Assembly (NCBI GenBank): GCA_938084055.1
Contig: CALKDK010000010.1
Span: forward strand, 144,097 to 208,096
Reading direction: 5' to 3'
DNA: 64,000 nt
DNA from: an uncultured Luminiphilus sp.
GTDB lineage: Bacteria; Pseudomonadota; Gammaproteobacteria; Pseudomonadales; Halieaceae
In this document: one piece after another, positions 5,854-30,279 of the stretch
How the letters are laid out: every line of letters starts with the position of its first letter
Position numbering within the stretch: the first letter of the stretch is position 1
The notes under the pieces: model-generated
The model's input: only the letters and a program-made list of their open reading frames with translations
What the model was told of the DNA's origin: nothing
The model's database searches: none
Position numbers and translations under genes: made by a program

Positions 5854-7329
5854 TCAGTGGCCTCGCTCCTCCCTGAGCAGGCTGCGCCGGATTTTTCCCG
5901 CCTCATTGCGGGGTAGGGCGGTGACTATTTCCAGGGATCGAGGCACCTTGTAGGGCAGCAGTTGCTCCCGGCAAAGCTGCAAAAGGGCGACGTTCAGTTC
6001 TGCTGTGGCCGGCCCGTTGGCCTCGACCACGGCGTGGACGCGGCGACCCAGGTCATCGTCTTGCAGGCCGACGACAGCGACGTCCCTGACCTCGGGATGT
6101 TGGCTGATTACCGCTTCAATTTCTGCTGGGAAAATATTCGCCCCACCAGAAATAATCAGGTCGGTGCGCCGATCGGCGAGGTAGAGATACCCCTCTTCGT
6201 CCAGCCAGCCCAGATCCCCCACACTGGTGAACCCTCCGTTCAGGTCTTCCAGGGGTGCCGAGCCCCGGTACTCGCAGGGCGGGGCGGCACCGGCGATGCG
6301 GGTAAAGATTTCGCCCACCTCACCGGTTGGCACAGGGTTGCGTTGTTCGTCGAGAATCAGGATCTCGGTACCCACACCTCTGCCGACACTGCCACGATGT
6401 TCAAGCCATTCGTTGCCGTCGATGATGGTCAAGCCGTTGGCCTCAGTGGCTGCCCAGAGCTCTAGAATGCGCCCACCGCCCAACTTGGCGATAAAACCCT
6501 CCTTGGCCCAGGCGGGGCAGGGTGCAGCGAGGTGCCAGACCACTCGAACGCTCTCGAGATTGGCGACCATCCAGCCGGGCTCTCGAAGCATTCGTTGCAT
6601 CATGGTCGGCACGAGATTGAGTACGGTGGGTTGGTAGGACTCGATGATCTCGAGGCTCTGGGTGGCATTGAAGCGTTCATTGAGCAACACGCGTCCCCCC
6701 CGGAGCAACATGTTAATAGAAAACCAAAAGGGGCCGTTGTGGTACAGGGGTCCGGGGGAGTATTTGAGATCGCCGGGCTCAAACCGCATCAGTTGTGGAA
6801 TCACCGGGTTGTCGGGATCGAACAGTGCGTCACCGGTGGTGACGATCAACTTCGGCCGCCCTGTTGAGCCTCCCGACGCGAGCGCTTTTATCGGGTTGCT
6901 GACCCTTTGGGGCAGTGGGCTGCCCAGGGGGTCGGTGGCCATGAAGTCGTCAGGGTCAAGCGAGGGCGCCTCAGGACGGCCCTTTGCAATGACTACCTTG
7001 GGAGCTGCGAGAGCCAACAAGCCGCTCAGCTCAACCTCGGGAAGCCGGTGGCTAACTGGCATGGGGGTACCCCCGGCCTTAAGGATGGCCACGGTGGCGG
7101 TGAGAAACTGATTGCCAGTAGGCAATTGGATGGGCACAAGATCCCCGGGACCCACGTCATGGTCCAGCAGGAGGGACTCGGCGAGTCGGTCGGACCGATG
7201 GCGCAGCTGGCTGCGGGTCGTAATCTCGGCCTCGCCTGACATCATGACCGTCGTCAATAAAACCTCGTCGGGCTGGTGCTCGGCGAGACGATCCAGCAGG
7301 GCGCCCAAGGTTACGAGGGATGGGGTCAT
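5854..7329 (-). CDS. AMP-dependent acyl-CoA ligase (ANL family)
   Basis: ANL-superfamily enzyme of 491 residues that activates a carboxylic acid to its CoA thioester through an acyl-adenylate. Seen: phosphate-binding loop ALASGGSTGRPK around residue 150, the core motif ELWAATEANG around residue 300, the hinge region YLADRRTDLIISGGANIFP around residue 390, and the C-terminal catalytic lysine in NEAGKIRRS. GGAGAT 4-5 nt before the ATG supports the start. The acid substrate cannot be assigned; the sequence looks closer to the bile-acid/steroid or aryl-acid CoA ligase type than to FadD. It is convergent with the TonB receptor gene, and the pair may act on one exogenous substrate (inference). Confidence 0.88.
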   Translation of the reverse strand: MTPSLVTLGALLDRLAEHQPDEVLLTTVMMSGEAEITTRSQLRHRSDRLAESLLLDHDVGPGDLVPIQLPTGNQFLTATVAILKAGGTPMPVSHRLPEVELSGLLALAAPKVVIAKGRPEAPSLDPDDFMATDPLGSPLPQRVSNPIKALASGGSTGRPKLIVTTGDALFDPDNPVIPQLMRFEPGDLKYSPGPLYHNGPFWFSINMLLRGGRVLLNERFNATQSLEIIESYQPTVLNLVPTMMQRMLREPGWMVANLESVRVVWHLAAPCPAWAKEGFIAKLGGGRILELWAATEANGLTIIDGNEWLEHRGSVGRGVGTEILILDEQRNPVPTGEVGEIFTRIAGAAPPCEYRGSAPLEDLNGGFTSVGDLGWLDEEGYLYLADRRTDLIISGGANIFPAEIEAVISQHPEVRDVAVVGLQDDDLGRRVHAVVEANGPATAELNVALLQLCREQLLPYKVPRSLEIVTALPRNEAGKIRRSLLREERGH

Positions 7330-21923: not shown

Positions 21924-22252
21924 ACCGTTTCCCGCTGTCGGGCAACCCACTCAAAGTGACGCACCAACTCTGTGTCTGCCAGGAGCAGAGCCAGGGTATT
22001 GAACTGCCGCGCGAGGGTCATTTCGTCATACCGTTTGTGGATGCCCCGATGGCAACGCCGGCACACCATGATCCCGGCATGGAGGGTTTCGTTGTCATAG
22101 CGTCTTTGAAAGTGCGGCCTACGATGGACCTTCCTGGGTATCAGGTGATGAAACGTAAGGGGCACCCGCCTGCCGCAGCATACGCAGGGGGCTATCAGCC
22201 CCCGCTGACGTTTTTCGGTGCGCCCGCTATGGGGCAGATGCCAGTGCCGCAT
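21920..22252 (-). CDS. HNH-like small zinc protein coupled to gpx
   Basis: Protein of about 110 residues. Seen: two Cys pairs, CVCC near residue 22 and CRRC near residue 57, and between them LTFHHLIPRKVHRR, which has the HH of an HNH nuclease; RRCHRGIHKRY gives the final His. This is the layout of small HNH/YisB-type proteins, so it may be a nuclease or only a zinc-binding relative. The ATG at 22252 lies 26 nt inside the 3' end of the glutathione peroxidase gene and has no clear ribosome binding site, so translation is probably coupled. The track start at 22417 would overlap gpx much further and is unlikely. Confidence 0.65.
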   Translation of the reverse strand: MRHWHLPHSGRTEKRQRGLIAPCVCCGRRVPLTFHHLIPRKVHRRPHFQRRYDNETLHAGIMVCRRCHRGIHKRYDEMTLARQFNTLALLLADTELVRHFEWVARQRETV

Positions 22253-22772
22253 CAATGGTGCCACGTAACTTTTGGCTCTCGGGTCCCACATTACTGCCAA
22301 AATGCTCGACGACATTACCCTGGGTATCAACGATGTATTTGTTGAAATTCCAGGTGGGATAGCCCTTGGCTTCACCCAGGCCTCTAAATACCGGGTTGGC
22401 ATCTTTGCCGCGAACACCGCTGGTGGCCATCATTGGGAAACTTACGTCATATTTTTCATAGCAGACAGCGGCGACATCCCCTTCATCATTCTCTTCCTGG
22501 AAGAAGTCGTCGCTGGAAAAGCCAATGACGACAAGTCCCTTGTCCTGGTATTCACGATGCAAAGCCTCAAGGCCGTCAAATTGAGGCGTATAGCCACAGT
22601 TACTGGCGGTATTGACGATCAACATGGCTTTGCCTGCGTACGCTTCACAGAAGTTGATGGTTTCTTTTGAGCTTAAACGGCGCATATCATGGTCAAGGTA
22701 ATCAGGACAGGCCAAGAGGGCTGGACTGATCAGCATGGTCAGGAAAGTAGACACTTTGGAAACGGTATTCAT
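22227..22772 (-). CDS. Exported glutathione peroxidase (Cys type)
   Basis: Thiol peroxidase of 181 residues with an N-terminal export signal (VSTFLTMLISPALLA). Seen: NTASNCGYTPQFDGLEALH, where Cys59 sits in the place of the selenocysteine/Cys nucleophile, VIGFSSDDFFQEEN (the family's Gln region), and WNFNKYIVD near the C-terminus (the WNF motif). It would reduce peroxides in the periplasm, probably with thioredoxin-like donors as for most bacterial Cys-GPx. TAGGAG 8 nt before the ATG at 22772 fixes the start. Confidence 0.9.
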   Translation of the reverse strand: MNTVSKVSTFLTMLISPALLACPDYLDHDMRRLSSKETINFCEAYAGKAMLIVNTASNCGYTPQFDGLEALHREYQDKGLVVIGFSSDDFFQEENDEGDVAAVCYEKYDVSFPMMATSGVRGKDANPVFRGLGEAKGYPTWNFNKYIVDTQGNVVEHFGSNVGPESQKLRGTIDAALASAP

Positions 22773-22977
22773 GACAAAACTCCTACGCCGGTTGTGGCTG
22801 TGGTTTTGAGGGTTGATGCCTATCATACGAAGGTTCGGATGGGGTGGATGTCCATGACAAGGCATCCAGCCCGATTTCTGATGCGGAGCGGTCTCTCATT
22901 TCCCCCGCCTGCAATGTCCAGCCTGCGCGGGGTATACGGGCGGGATTGACCCCCTTTTGTTTTTTGGGTTTCTTCGC

Positions 22978-25845: not shown

Positions 25846-26667
25846 TTACAGCCCGAAGCGCTCCCATAAAAAATGCGCCACACCGTCTTCGTTATGGTGC
25901 CCAATAACAGCAGTCGCCTCCGCCTTGACTTCATCGTCAGCGTTGGCTGTGGCATAGGCCTCATCGGCTACGGCAAACATACTCAGGTCATTGTCCCCAT
26001 CGCCAAAGACCACAACCCTGTCGTAGCCGTGCTCCCGGCGCAGGGTATTGATGCCATTACCCTTGCTGCCGGAGCTGTGGTGTATGTCCATCCAGGACAG
26101 TCCCTCAGACTGGATCGCCGTACCCGTGTAGGCAACGAGACGCGCCTCGTCTGCAATGGAATCAATGACGGTCTCAATGTGTGCCCGGGGACCCATGCCA
26201 CTGACATTGATCACATGCGCGGTATCGGGCATCGCACTGATGGCTTCAAGGGGCAGGTGACGCTCGTCCTCAAACAGTTGGGCAAGGCGATTTTCTGCCT
26301 CGTTTTTTAAGGGTCCATGGTAGACCGCGTGGTGGCTGCCGCCTTCGAGGGTAAAGACGAATGGCGTGATTTCCTGCAAAGTCATCGCCGCCAGCACGTG
26401 GTAGACCTCGTGTTGTGTGAGCAGGTGGCTGTGACTGTAATTCTGCTGGTTGGGACACCAGATCATTGCGCCATTTTTTAAGATGTGGGGCAGCTCAAAG
26501 TGAAATGATTTCAGGGGGCCCAGTGCTGCCTGCAGCGTTCGGCCCGTTGCTACCGTGTAGGCGATCCCCGCAGAGCGCAGGCGCGCAAGTGTCTCTGCAG
26601 TAAAGGGCGTCACCTCGGAGCTTGCGTTGAGCAGCGTTCCATCCATATCGAACACAACCAGCGTCAC
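25846..26667 (-). CDS. HAD-type phosphatase, Cof family
   Basis: Haloacid dehalogenase-like phosphatase of 273 residues, Cof/type IIB group. Seen: VVFDMDGTLLN with the nucleophilic Asp within the first ten residues, TVATGRTLQAALGPL (motif II), and VVFGDGDNDLSMF (motif IV) near residue 215; a cap domain lies between. Such enzymes dephosphorylate small sugar phosphates or nucleotide cofactors. The track starts 11 codons earlier, but AGGGGGA lies 7 nt before the GTG at 26667, so I used that. Confidence 0.86.
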   Translation of the reverse strand: MTLVVFDMDGTLLNASSEVTPFTAETLARLRSAGIAYTVATGRTLQAALGPLKSFHFELPHILKNGAMIWCPNQQNYSHSHLLTQHEVYHVLAAMTLQEITPFVFTLEGGSHHAVYHGPLKNEAENRLAQLFEDERHLPLEAISAMPDTAHVINVSGMGPRAHIETVIDSIADEARLVAYTGTAIQSEGLSWMDIHHSSGSKGNGINTLRREHGYDRVVVFGDGDNDLSMFAVADEAYATANADDEVKAEATAVIGHHNEDGVAHFLWERFGL

Positions 26668-26760
26668 ACTGATGTCCCCCTGCTCGGCGCAGACAGCCAC
26701 AGGGGGTGGTGGCGGCCCCGTACCGCTCTGCCGGTTGAATGATGAGTCATTGGCTTCCTA

Positions 26761-27357
26761 TCAATGGGTATCGGGTGCCAGGTCATTGCTCAGCGAGTCC
26801 CTGATGACCGGGTCGACCACAAATTTGTCGATGGGGTAGGCATCGTGGCTGATTCCGGCGTAGAGCACGCCGCCATCTTTGAGGGCATTGATCTGCTCCT
26901 TGGAGAGCTCAAACCGCAGAAAATGGACCGACGAGGTTTTTTCTTCATTCTCCCGTTCCATGTCTTCGTCACAAATAGGCGTGATGGGTGGCAAACCCTC
27001 GACCTGAAGCCATACGGCCTCTTCAATGCCCTTCATCTCTCGCAGGCGCTGGGCGCGCTCCACTGGGTCGCCAAATTCAATCATGAAAGTTGCTTTCCAG
27101 TTTTGTCCGTCGGGTATGAGGGGGTTGTAGGCGTTGAGTTCCTCTTCTATCCCCGCTGCCTCAAATGTTTTTTCAATGCGCAGCATTTCCTGAATCTGGT
27201 AGCGGATCGTTGTGCTGTCCTCAAAATACAGGCGCGCATGTCGTCCCAGAGCCAATTGACGGGTCTTTTTGTGGGCCATGACCTCGGCTCGATACGCGCT
27301 GCGTCGCACAGCATATTCTTCCAGCGACCATAGGTCTTCACGACGAAGATGTGGCAT
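26761..27357 (-). CDS. DUF3501 family protein
   Basis: Soluble protein of 198 residues matching the DUF3501 pattern: LRREDLWSLEEYAVRRSAYR at the N-terminus, a middle part rich in charged residues with TIRYQIQEMLRIEKTFE and AYNPLIPDGQNWKATFMIEF, and HFLRFELSKEQI near the C-terminus. No catalytic motif or metal site is evident and the function of the family is unknown. It starts 23 nt after the Fe-S oxidoreductase gene with GAGGAG 9 nt upstream of the ATG. Such proteins are found next to rubrerythrin and CCG-domain Fe-S genes in several proteobacteria, so it is likely a partner in that redox unit. Confidence 0.8.
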   Translation of the reverse strand: MPHLRREDLWSLEEYAVRRSAYRAEVMAHKKTRQLALGRHARLYFEDSTTIRYQIQEMLRIEKTFEAAGIEEELNAYNPLIPDGQNWKATFMIEFGDPVERAQRLREMKGIEEAVWLQVEGLPPITPICDEDMERENEEKTSSVHFLRFELSKEQINALKDGGVLYAGISHDAYPIDKFVVDPVIRDSLSNDLAPDTH

Positions 27358-27380
27358 TTCTTGTGCTCCTCGTAGACGAA

Positions 27381-28703
27381 CTAAAGTCCGTAGGCCATCC
27401 GCAGCAGCGTCATGGGATGTAGCGCGGCGTCGACCGTTTCGGACAGGTTTGCAATCTGGGCTCCGGCCATTGGGCAGTCGCTTATGAAGTGATCCGGGTT
27501 CTGGGCGTCGACCTTCTTGACCGTTGGCCGTGCGATTTTAACGGACTTTGCCCGGGTCTCTGATTTTACCGCGTAGGTGCCGTCATGGCCCGAGCAACGC
27601 TCGTGGGCGATTACCTCACTGTCAGCAACCAGGGCAAGTACATCGCGGGTTTTCAGTCCTATATTCTGAACGCGCTGGTGGCAGGCCACCTGATAGGCGA
27701 CGTTGCCAATGCCGGCTGCAAAATCGGTGTTCAAGGCGCCCCCTTTGTGGCGCAGCCAAAGGTATTCGAACGGGTCATAAAAGGCCTGTTTAACCTTGAG
27801 GACGTCCGGATCGTCGGGGTACATGAGGGGCAATTCCTGTTTGTACATCAAGACACAGGAAGGTATGGGGGCTACCAGGTCATAGCCCCGATCAACCAGT
27901 TGCGCGAGCGCGGGAATATTAGCCTGCTTCAATGCATCAACAGCATCCAGGTCTCCCAACTCGAGCTTTGGCATTCCACAGCACTTCTCCCTGGGCACCA
28001 CATCGATGTGAATGCCGTTGTGCTGAAAGACACGTACAAAATCCTCCCCAACTTCAGGACTGTTGTAGTTGCCGTAGCAGGTGGCATAAAGCGCAACCTT
28101 GCCGGTTGTCTCTCCAATGGGACTGGCTTCCAGGGATTTCACAAGGGGTGCGACCCGCTTACGAAGTGTCTTTGCGTGCATGCGGGGCAGCGGTGCCTCA
28201 TGGTGAATATTCAGCGTCTTTTCCACCACTTTTCTGAAGCCGTTATTTTGGTTCAGGGCGTTGACCGTAATATCGACCAGTGGAATCGACATCATGCCGA
28301 GCATGGTATCCGTGCTGGTAAGGGATTTGTCCCGCAGGCTTCCCCCTTCCTCACGGAATTTTATGGCCTTGGCCCGGAGCATCAGGTGGGGGAAATCGAC
28401 ATTGAACTCATGGGGAGGGACGTAGGGACACTTCGTCATGAAGCACAGGTCGCAGAGGTAGCACTGGTCGACGACTTTGGTGTAATCACTGCGGTCAACG
28501 CCGTCGACTTCGAAGGTCTCTGATTCGTCAATCAGGTCAAAGAGGGTGGGAAACGAGTCACACAGGCTGACGCAGCGACGGCAGCCGTGGCAGATGTCGT
28601 AGACCCGCTCCAGCTCGTCATTGAGCGCGTCCTTGTCCCAGAAAGCGTCATTCTTCCAGTCAATAGGATGCCTTGTGGGTGCTTCGAGACTGCCTTCTCG
28701 CAT
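27381..28703 (-). CDS. CCG-domain Fe-S oxidoreductase (HdrD/GlpC-like)
   Basis: Iron-sulfur protein of 440 residues. Seen: two [4Fe-4S] motifs, CHGCRRCVSLC near residue 38 and CYLCDLCFMTKCPYVPP near residue 82, then two CCG-type cysteine domains (YATCYGNYN...EKCCGMPKLELGD and the divergent VACHQRV...ERCSGHDGTY). The layout is that of the HdrD/GlpC superfamily, whose CCG domains bind Fe-S clusters or thiols. The second CCG repeat has Ser in place of one Cys. The track ORF reaches back to 29126 in a frame antiphase with rubrerythrin; the Met at 28703 is the true start, with GGAA upstream. It likely feeds electrons to rubrerythrin (inference). Confidence 0.88.
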   Translation of the reverse strand: MREGSLEAPTRHPIDWKNDAFWDKDALNDELERVYDICHGCRRCVSLCDSFPTLFDLIDESETFEVDGVDRSDYTKVVDQCYLCDLCFMTKCPYVPPHEFNVDFPHLMLRAKAIKFREEGGSLRDKSLTSTDTMLGMMSIPLVDITVNALNQNNGFRKVVEKTLNIHHEAPLPRMHAKTLRKRVAPLVKSLEASPIGETTGKVALYATCYGNYNSPEVGEDFVRVFQHNGIHIDVVPREKCCGMPKLELGDLDAVDALKQANIPALAQLVDRGYDLVAPIPSCVLMYKQELPLMYPDDPDVLKVKQAFYDPFEYLWLRHKGGALNTDFAAGIGNVAYQVACHQRVQNIGLKTRDVLALVADSEVIAHERCSGHDGTYAVKSETRAKSVKIARPTVKKVDAQNPDHFISDCPMAGAQIANLSETVDAALHPMTLLRMAYGL

Positions 28704-28734
28704 CTTGGATTCCGTTTTAATGCTGGTTTGATTT

Positions 28735-28772
28735 AAACAAAAAGTAAGGGGGAACGCTGTGCGCTCCCCCCG
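28735..28772 (-). terminator. Hairpin between rubrerythrin and Fe-S gene
   Basis: On the minus strand GGGGGAGCGC-ACA-GCGTTCCCCC forms a GC-rich stem followed by TTACTTTTTG. It lies 20 nt after the rubrerythrin stop and before the Fe-S gene. It may terminate part of the transcripts and give more rubrerythrin than Fe-S protein. Confidence 0.65.
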
Positions 28773-28791
28773 ACCGGTCTTGGGTTTAGGT

Positions 28792-29211
28792 TCAGTCGTC
28801 CATCGTGTCGAGGGTCTTCTGAAATTTGTTTGCATGGCTGCGCTCGGCCTTGGCCAGGGTTTCGAACCAGTCAGCAATCTCGTCAAAACCCTCTTCACGG
28901 GCTGAACTGGCCATGCCCGGGTACATATCGGTGTACTCGTGTGTCTCGCCCGCGATGGATGCTTCAAGGTTTTTACGGGTATCGCCCATCGGCAGGCCCG
29001 TGGCCGGATCCCCGACGGCCTCGAGGTACTCGAGGTGGCCGTGGGCGTGACCTGTTTCGCCCTCTGCTGTTGAACGGAATACTGCGGCCACGTCGTTGTA
29101 GCCCTCGACGTCAGCCTTGGCGGCAAAGTACAGGTAGCGACGGTTGGCCTGGGACTCGCCAGAAAAGGCGTCCTTCAGGTTTTGTTCGGTCTTGGTGCCT
29201 TTTAGTTCCAT
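28792..29211 (-). CDS. Rubrerythrin, rubredoxin-less
   Basis: Diiron peroxidase of 139 residues. Seen: the four-helix ferritin-like fold with [31 protein letters not shown] (the ExxH of the first site) and [15 protein letters not shown], then [16 protein letters not shown] (second ExxH). The C-terminal rubredoxin domain of classical rubrerythrin is absent, so it needs an external electron donor. GGGAGA 7 nt before the ATG supports the start. First gene of a minus-strand unit with an Fe-S oxidoreductase and DUF3501 protein, and divergent from oxyR. Role: reduction of hydrogen peroxide to water in the cytoplasm. Confidence 0.92.
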
Positions 29212-29276
29212 GGTTGTTCTCCCGGAATCTGTCTACTGTGACGTCTCATTCCCCGCGTCACGGATGGGGACACAGC

Positions 29277-29343
29277 AATATACCGAAGTGGGGTCAATTT
29301 GGCTTACATGGTTTTTTTAAAAAATATAATCGATAATATCGAT
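29277..29343 (-). promoter_or_regulatory. Candidate OxyR-controlled promoter of rubrerythrin
   Basis: On the minus strand TATATT at 29282-29277 can serve as -10; the base stretch 17 nt upstream is a poor -35 (AAGCCA), as is common for activator-dependent promoters. Just upstream an A/T-rich block holds two ATCGAT palindromes 9 nt apart (29329-29334, 29338-29343), the type of position OxyR occupies. The match to the OxyR consensus is loose, so the site is a proposal. Confidence 0.4.
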
Positions 29344-29376
29344 CAATGAGCCAGGCACTCTGGCAGGGAATATAAC

Positions 29377-30279
29377 GTGGCGCGCCAACCCACACTAAAG
29401 CAGTTGAAATACCTCTGTGCGATAGCGGAGCACCAGCACTTTGGTCGTGCCGCAGAGGCCAGCCATGTCAGCCAGAGCACGCTCAGCGCGGGTATTCAAG
29501 AGTTGGAAGAAACCCTGTCTGCGTCACTGGTGGAGCGCAACAACCGCAACGTGCTGCTCACGGGTCTTGGGCATGAGATCGTAAGGAGGGCCCATGAGGT
29601 GCTCGTTGAGATCGATGACCTGGTTTCACTTTGCGCCGCCGCTCGCGAGCCCTTCAGCGGGAAGATGCGTTTGGGTGTGATTCCAACGATTGCGCCTTTT
29701 CTCTTGCCTTACCTGCTGGGTCCCCTGCGAGATGAACACCCCGACTTTAAACTGTATATCCGGGAGGACTTGAGTCACCATCTGGTGAATGCGTTGCACG
29801 CCGGAGAGCTCGATGTGCTGCTCCTTGCCTTGCCTTTTCCCGCAGAAGGCACGGAAGTTATGTCGCTGCTTACCGACGCCTTCCTACTGGCGAGCCCTGA
29901 AGCGCATCCCCTCGCCAACAGCAAGCGGCTGGCGACCACGGATTTGAAGGGGGAAGAGCTGTTATTGCTCGAGGACGGCCACTGCCTGCGGGACCACGCC
30001 CTCGAGGCCTGTGACCTGAGGGGCTCTCAGGTTTCCATTCCCTATCAGGCCACCAGTCTCGCCACCATCGTACAGATGGTTGCCAACGGCATAGGGATCA
30101 CGTTGTTGCCCCAGATGTCTGTGGCGGCGGGGATAACCGCTGGCACCAACATTGTGGTAACGCCCTTCAGGGGGCCCCAGGTGGCTCGGGAGATCGGCCT
30201 TATGTGGCGGAAGAAAACCCCGAGAAGAGCCGAATTCCGACTGCTTGGGGAGAAGGTCATAGCCAGCGCGGTACGCTGA
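29377..30279 (+). CDS. oxyR: Hydrogen peroxide-sensing regulator OxyR
   Basis: LysR-family regulator of 300 residues. Seen: N-terminal helix-turn-helix (LKQLKYLCAIAEHQHFGRAAEA, SQSTLSAGIQELE) and, in the effector domain, LEDGHCLRDHALEAC. Cys203 and Cys212 of this motif are nine residues apart, exactly as Cys199 and Cys208 of E. coli OxyR, which form the peroxide-triggered disulfide. The C-terminus has GIGITLLPQMSV, also as in OxyR. It starts with GTG. It lies divergent from the rubrerythrin operon, its probable target. Convergent with the TonB receptor gene downstream. Confidence 0.93.
   Translation: MARQPTLKQLKYLCAIAEHQHFGRAAEASHVSQSTLSAGIQELEETLSASLVERNNRNVLLTGLGHEIVRRAHEVLVEIDDLVSLCAAAREPFSGKMRLGVIPTIAPFLLPYLLGPLRDEHPDFKLYIREDLSHHLVNALHAGELDVLLLALPFPAEGTEVMSLLTDAFLLASPEAHPLANSKRLATTDLKGEELLLLEDGHCLRDHALEACDLRGSQVSIPYQATSLATIVQMVANGIGITLLPQMSVAAGITAGTNIVVTPFRGPQVAREIGLMWRKKTPRRAEFRLLGEKVIASAVR

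What the first reader, a model, noticed from the sequence alone, without database searches (positions are those of the whole stretch)
26761..30279. OxyR-linked peroxide module: rubrerythrin + CCG Fe-S protein + DUF3501
A rubrerythrin without its rubredoxin domain, an HdrD/GlpC-like Fe-S oxidoreductase with CCG domains and a DUF3501 protein of unknown function lie in one direction, divergent from an OxyR with both redox cysteines (Cys203/Cys212). Seen: gene order, motifs, and an A/T-rich dyad in the divergent gap. Known: rubredoxin-less rubrerythrins need an outside donor, and OxyR controls peroxide defence. Inference: the Fe-S protein is that donor, perhaps taking electrons from a thiol or quinone pool, and DUF3501 is an adaptor or maturation factor. 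An aerobic rubrerythrin system of this make-up has no settled electron path that I know of.
Basis: partly seen in the sequence, partly recalled or inferred. Interest (0 to 1): 0.7.

Follow-up and report, generated by a model that had tools for sequence, protein, structure and literature searches.

The report
Known OxyR-linked aerobic rubrerythrin peroxide operon
This marine bacterium carries a three-gene peroxide-defence operon, published in 2016 as the "aerobic-type rubrerythrin" system, next to a peroxide-sensing switch (OxyR) with a conserved DNA site; the set is real and widespread, but how its parts pass electrons is still unproven.

Summary
DUF3501 (26761-27357), a GlpC/Hdr-like Fe-S protein (27381-28703) and a rubredoxin-less rubrerythrin (28792-29211) lie head to tail, divergent from an OxyR (29377-30279) whose Cys203/Cys212 align with E. 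coli Cys199/Cys208. The combination is not new: Cardenas et al. 2016 (PMC5114695) named exactly this trio the "aerobic-type" RBR-RFO-DUF3501 system; OxyR linkage (PMC7852563) and a mitochondrial version (PMC7050145) are published, and a one-domain relative, ferriperoxin, is a proven NADPH/FNR-driven peroxidase (PMC3317640). What I add: (1) the divergent-gap dyad is a 4-7-4 OxyR-type box, ATCG-N7-CGAT at 29329-29343, intact in 25/25 gaps; OxyR-type boxes precede rubrerythrin in 29/31 OxyR-linked and 22/83 unlinked loci (shuffles 0.5 and 1.3). (2) RFO's second CCG site lacks two of five cluster cysteines in all 48 sequences, favouring a plain electron relay over Hdr-type thiol chemistry. (3) RFO-DUF3501 fusions recur in Nitrosomonas relatives. 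(4) A divergent DUF3501 paralogue sits head to head with a 2-Cys peroxiredoxin in six Luminiphilus genomes. Electron source and DUF3501's role stay unproven. Low-to-moderate interest: a known system with sharpened, testable details.

The parts
26761..27357 (-). DUF3501 protein, 198 aa (third gene of the operon)
   Evidence: PF12007 E=6e-66; AF2 model pLDDT 92, same fold as PDB 3fjv and no other PDB relative
27381..28703 (-). RFO: GlpC-like Fe-S oxidoreductase, 440 aa; two cubane [4Fe-4S] motifs (C38/41/44/48, C81/84/87/92), CCG1 (C209, C241, C242, C283), degenerate CCG2 (C341, C370-Ser371, C410)
   Evidence: Pfam/NCBIfam; Cys invariant in 48 sequences; start; fold resembles LutA, EtfD, HdrB
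28792..29211 (-). Aerobic-type rubrerythrin, 139 aa, no rubredoxin domain; diiron ligands E19, E52, H55, E89, E92, E123, H126
   Evidence: PF02915; ligands invariant in 48 sequences; best PDB matches are one-domain rubrerythrins 9onm/4di0/8fuh and sulerythrin
29278..29283 (-). Putative -10 element (TATATT) of the rubrerythrin operon; no good -35 box
   Evidence: TATAC block conserved in alignment of 25 gaps; sequence read; inference, no start site mapped
29329..29343 (.). OxyR-type inverted repeat ATCG-N7-CGAT, centred about 65 bp upstream of the inferred rubrerythrin start site
   Evidence: half-sites unchanged in 25/25 gaps; same 4-7-4 layout as ATAG-N7-CTAT of known OxyR (PMC8787470, PMC5002191)
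29377..30279 (+). OxyR-type LysR regulator, 300 aa, Cys203/Cys212
   Evidence: 40% identical to E. coli OxyR with both Cys aligned; the only close OxyR in the genome, the second LysR hit being 30% identical

Best explanation
This is a member of the published aerobic-type rubrerythrin system (RBR-RFO-DUF3501) in a Luminiphilus genome, switched on by the divergent OxyR. Proposed working: peroxide oxidises the OxyR Cys203-Cys212 pair; OxyR sitting on the ATCG-N7-CGAT box contacts RNA polymerase at a promoter with a -10 but no good -35, and the operon is transcribed. Rubrerythrin reduces H2O2 (and probably organic peroxides) at its diiron site. Lacking rubredoxin, it is re-reduced by RFO, a soluble GlpC-like Fe-S relay that draws electrons from a general pool (quinol or a flavoprotein such as FNR). 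DUF3501, which has no conserved cysteine, is a non-redox partner that docks RFO to rubrerythrin or tunes it. Shown: genes, motifs, co-occurrence, conserved box, fusions. Inferred: peroxide induction, RFO as donor, source of its electrons, DUF3501 role.
For: Identity; published definition PMC5114695. Co-occurrence: in 42 genomes rubrerythrin and RFO are present or absent together in all (25 with both), DUF3501 is in 24 of those 25 (in the 25th RFO is cut short in a 218-aa frame), and only one genome, G045, has DUF3501 alone. Order RBR>RFO>DUF3501 is fixed in about 45 relatives and 65 of 80 genome-collection loci; 11 of the other 15 are cut by contig ends; where one gene is missing locally it is elsewhere in the genome for L171, L174 and L181. 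RFO-DUF3501 single frames of 665-676 aa in at least 13 of 28 DUF3501-bearing Nitrosomonas-like genomes. OxyR box; redox Cys. Peroxidase chemistry and need for aerobic growth shown for the one-domain relative ferriperoxin (PMC3317640).
Against: Ferriperoxin works with NADPH/FNR and no RFO in vitro, so RFO need not be the donor. AF2 of a natural RFO-DUF3501 fusion folds both domains but pTM is only 0.67, no confident interface. No flavoprotein or other electron source recurs near the module. The box here is ATCG rather than canonical ATAG. No expression data.
Confidence: 0.6

Rival explanations
1. Rubrerythrin is reduced directly by NADPH through FNR or ferredoxin, as ferriperoxin is; RFO does something else, such as electron supply to another partner or protection of Fe-S enzymes.
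For: Ferriperoxin assay with NADPH and FNR (PMC3317640); some archaea and others have RBR-DUF3501 without RFO (PMC5114695).
Against: RFO is kept with rubrerythrin in every genome tested here (25 of 25) and in fixed position between the two other genes; the FNR test had no RFO present for comparison.
Confidence: 0.2
2. RFO takes electrons from low-molecular thiols by Hdr-like chemistry at its CCG clusters and hands them to rubrerythrin.
For: CCG1 keeps C-CCG-C, with C283 aligned to HdrB's bridging Cys; fold match to HdrB.
Against: CCG2 has Cys-Ser in place of Cys-Cys and lacks the last Cys of CXXC, i.e. the bridging catalytic cysteine, in all 48 sequences; Hdr chemistry uses two complete noncubane clusters and EtfD, which changed such ligands, is a plain electron wire (PMC13083937).
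Confidence: 0.07
3. The proteins chiefly manage iron: rubrerythrin as a ferroxidase or store, DUF3501 as iron chaperone or maturation factor, RFO releasing iron by reduction, with OxyR limiting free iron under peroxide.
For: Ferritin-like fold; OxyR in other bacteria also controls iron sequestration (general knowledge); DUF3501 has conserved Glu/His but no conserved Cys; a Dps neighbour is reported in one published operon (PMC7852563).
Against: The relative ferriperoxin is a true peroxidase essential for aerobic growth (PMC3317640); no iron-uptake or storage genes recur beside the module.
Confidence: 0.1

Closest known systems
Aerobic-type rubrerythrin system RBR-RFO-DUF3501 (Cardenas et al. 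2016, PMC5114695)
   Same: Same three families, same co-localisation, rubrerythrin without rubredoxin, alpha/beta/gamma-proteobacterial distribution, RFO-DUF3501 fusion in Nitrosomonas.
   Different: Nothing essential; here the divergent OxyR and its conserved box are described, which the parts of that paper I read do not discuss.
OxyR-linked DUF3501-COG0247-RBR operon of Sideroxydans lithotrophicus (PMC7852563)
   Same: OxyR clustered with the trio.
   Different: In Luminiphilus OxyR is divergent with the box between; no Dps next to it.
Ferriperoxin of Hydrogenobacter thermophilus (PMC3317640) and sulerythrin
   Same: One-domain rubrerythrin of the same lineage; ferriperoxin reduces H2O2 and organic peroxides.
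   Different: In H. thermophilus the RFO gene is separate (PMC5114695) and the donor tested was NADPH/FNR.
GlpC, subunit of anaerobic glycerol-3-phosphate dehydrogenase
   Same: Two cubane [4Fe-4S] motifs plus two CCG domains; same four Cys in CCG1; best NCBIfam match.
   Different: 26% identity to E. coli GlpC; CCG2 of GlpC is complete (CCG, CETC) whereas RFO has CSG and a single C; no glpA/glpB beside it.

Membership tests
Aerobic-type RBR-RFO-DUF3501 system | Rubrerythrin with intact diiron ligands and no rubredoxin domain | tested here: met
   PF02915 without rubredoxin, seven ligands invariant, closest PDB relatives are one-domain rubrerythrins
Aerobic-type RBR-RFO-DUF3501 system | Adjacent DUF3501 (PF12007) gene | tested here: met
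   E=6e-66; position fixed in relatives
Aerobic-type RBR-RFO-DUF3501 system | Adjacent COG0247-type Fe-S oxidoreductase with CCG domain | tested here: met
Aerobic-type RBR-RFO-DUF3501 system | Co-occurrence across genomes | tested here: met
Aerobic-type RBR-RFO-DUF3501 system | Peroxidase activity | not testable with these tools
   shown only for ferriperoxin (PMC3317640)
OxyR | LysR fold with the redox cysteine pair (E. coli Cys199/Cys208) | tested here: met
OxyR | Score over NCBIfam OxyR equivalog cut-off (PRK11151, 329 bits) | tested here: not met
   239 bits, though the best of 50 matching families; this is an annotation threshold, not a functional feature, so I call it OxyR-type
OxyR | ATAG-N7-CTAT boxes at the target promoter | tested here: inconclusive
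   same 4-7-4 layout but ATCG-N7-CGAT, intact in 25/25; canonical ATAG boxes in other lineages' modules; second box not recognisable
OxyR | Response to peroxide | not testable with these tools
   needs expression data
GlpC | Score over GlpC cut-off and full second CCG motif | tested here: not met
   218 of 278 bits and 143 of 280 bits; CCG2 lacks two Cys
Heterodisulfide reductase HdrB/HdrD | Two complete five-cysteine CCG motifs | tested here: not met
   four and three Cys

The most novel reading that the evidence does not exclude
RFO and DUF3501 form a dedicated electron-delivery unit that links the respiratory quinol or flavoprotein pool to a soluble diiron peroxidase, so that cells burn peroxide with respiratory electrons; DUF3501 is a general peroxidase-docking protein, as hinted by a divergent paralogue paired with a 2-Cys peroxiredoxin in Luminiphilus.
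Probability: 0.2. Interest if true: 0.6.

Novelty: already known. Interest (0 to 1): 0.3.

Why it matters
The system is widespread: DUF3501-like hits occur in about 40% of a class-wide sample of 369 genomes (weak matches included), and the trio is inferred for the ancestral mitochondrion (PMC7050145). Yet its electron path and the role of DUF3501 have no direct test that I found. The conserved OxyR box, the loss of Hdr-type cysteines in RFO and the natural fusions turn a vague idea into specific experiments.

Tried and rejected
(a) New system: rejected, published 2016. (b) Long TTG start of the Fe-S ORF at 29126: rejected, it overlaps rubrerythrin in another frame; ATG 28703 is the conserved start. 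(c) Fold relatives of DUF3501: only PDB 3fjv, itself a DUF3501 of unknown function; all other matches have E > 0.02. (d) RFO-DUF3501 interface: first alignment misplaced the DUF3501-only rows; repeated with natural neighbours read through the stop between them; pTM 0.67, inconclusive. (e) A recurring electron-donor gene near the module: none found; recurring neighbours are parE/parC-, proB- and ispB-like housekeeping genes and OxyR (named by eye from sequence). (f) OxyR box upstream of katG in Luminiphilus: in 3 of 8 genomes against 0.16 expected, but not in the window's own genome; start codons uncertain, so only suggestive. (h) phmmer of RFO alone against PDB found nothing; the profile found HdrB weakly (E=0.004).
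Full report
WHAT IS THERE. The finding's coordinates and order hold. On the minus strand, rubrerythrin (28792-29211), an Fe-S oxidoreductase (27381-28703) and DUF3501 (26761-27357) lie in one direction, 23 to 88 bp apart; on the plus strand a LysR-type regulator starts at 29377. Families: PF02915, PF02754 and PF12007, and LysR with OxyR as best NCBIfam match. The regulator has Cys203 and Cys212, aligned with Cys199 and Cys208 of E. coli OxyR. The genome is most likely a Luminiphilus: a record of that genus is the closest relative, 84% identical over DUF3501.

IS IT MORE THAN CHANCE. In 42 related genomes rubrerythrin and RFO are always present or absent together (25 with both), and DUF3501 is found in 24 of those 25; in the remaining one, G013, RFO is cut short in a 218-aa frame. 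One genome, G045, has a divergent DUF3501 alone. The order RBR>RFO>DUF3501 is the same in about 45 relatives across genus, order and phylum and in 65 of 80 loci from the genome collection; 11 of the other 15 are cut by contig ends. Three of the last four keep the missing gene elsewhere: L174 and L181 have RFO on another contig, L171 has rubrerythrin on another contig; L107 was not resolved.

REGULATION. Aligning 25 gaps between rubrerythrin and divergent OxyR, the half-sites ATCG and CGAT, seven bases apart, are unchanged in every sequence, while most other columns vary. In the window this is 29329-29343. Known OxyR boxes are ATAG-N7-CTAT pairs, the first centred near -66 (PMC8787470, PMC5002191). 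Here a conserved TATA block at 29278-29283 would put the rubrerythrin start near 29271 and the box centre about 65 bp upstream (inference). Scanning 250 bp upstream of rubrerythrin, a perfect ATnG-N7-CnAT repeat occurs in 29 of 31 OxyR-linked loci (mean 0.48 in shuffles) and in 22 of 83 loci without a nearby OxyR (mean 1.27, maximum 6), mostly the canonical ATAG form. The shuffles were single-base and many linked loci are one genus, so the unlinked, more diverse set is the better evidence. In eight genomes of the genus the next-best LysR is only 30-34% identical; in two of them it was read and lies beside a transporter gene and lacks the cysteine pair.

THE FE-S PROTEIN. All 48 RFO sequences keep eight cysteines for two cubane clusters, C209/C241/C242/C283 in CCG1, and only C341/C370/C410 in CCG2, where Cys-Cys-Gly has become Cys-Ser-Gly and the last Cys is lost. 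E. coli GlpC has the same CCG1 but a full CCG2. Against HdrB, C283 aligns with the second Cys of CXXC in CCG1 while the equivalent in CCG2 is missing (weak but motif-anchored). In Hdr those two are the bridging catalytic cysteines, and in EtfD, which changed such ligands, the clusters only carry electrons (PMC13083937). The fold search on the model gives LutA, EtfD and HdrB. I therefore favour a relay over a thiol-active enzyme.

DUF3501. No cysteine is conserved; a run of charged residues including D132, R135 and K140 is invariant in the alignments and lies in a loop that the otherwise confident model (pLDDT 92) leaves uncertain. The only fold relative is PDB 3fjv, a DUF3501 itself. RFO and DUF3501 are one chain in at least 13 of 28 DUF3501-bearing Nitrosomonas-like genomes, which supports physical partnership; AF2 of that fusion folds both parts but with pTM 0.67 and a disordered linker, so no interface is shown.

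HOW IT MOST LIKELY WORKS. See best explanation. Identity as this known system: about 0.95. OxyR control: about 0.85. RFO as electron donor: about 0.6. Electron source and DUF3501 role: open.

COMPARISON WITH WHAT IS KNOWN. Cardenas et al. 2016 defined this lineage, named RFO, counted 185 genomes with all three genes and noted the Nitrosomonas fusion. The OxyR link was noted for Sideroxydans in 2020. The trio was traced to mitochondria in 2020. Ferriperoxin was shown to be an NADPH/FNR-dependent peroxidase needed for aerobic growth. The finding is therefore a known system; the additions here are the conserved box, its spread beyond OxyR-linked loci, the cysteine analysis and the paralogue beside peroxiredoxin.

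SIDE OBSERVATION. Six Luminiphilus genomes carry a second, divergent DUF3501 head to head with a typical 2-Cys peroxiredoxin; it lacks the charged loop, is broken in two genomes, and no close orthologue was found among 369 genomes of the class sample (best match 33% identity). It may hint that DUF3501-type proteins serve peroxidases in general, or be a decaying local copy.

Noticed in passing
L079:5685-6458 (-) with 6595-7221 (+); likewise L080, L081, L082, L083, L084: Divergent DUF3501 paralogue (about 257 aa, without the conserved charged loop) head to head with a 2-Cys peroxiredoxin in six Luminiphilus genomes; broken by stops in L083 and L084; genome G020 (L081) has it without rubrerythrin-type RFO being found.
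   Followed up: partly
L078:5560-6168 (-): Orphan DUF3501 in genome G045 with no rubrerythrin or RFO found in the genome, next to aldehyde dehydrogenase and arginase-family genes.
   Followed up: partly
L171:5793-8576 (+): In Thiorhodococcus mannitoliphagus a glutathione-peroxidase-family gene (PF00255) occupies the rubrerythrin position before RFO and DUF3501; rubrerythrin is on another contig.
   Followed up: partly
window 22227-22865 (-): Glutathione-peroxidase-like protein about 4 kb from the operon; a homologue lies at a similar distance in most Luminiphilus loci.
   Followed up: partly
window 25846-26700 (-): Cof-type HAD hydrolase directly after DUF3501, kept next to the operon in most Luminiphilus but 1.3-2 kb away in one subgroup (L071-L075).
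   Followed up: partly
L179:6603-8591 (+): Natural RFO-DUF3501 fusion protein of 662 aa in Nitrosomonas, a handy single chain for structure work.
   Followed up: yes
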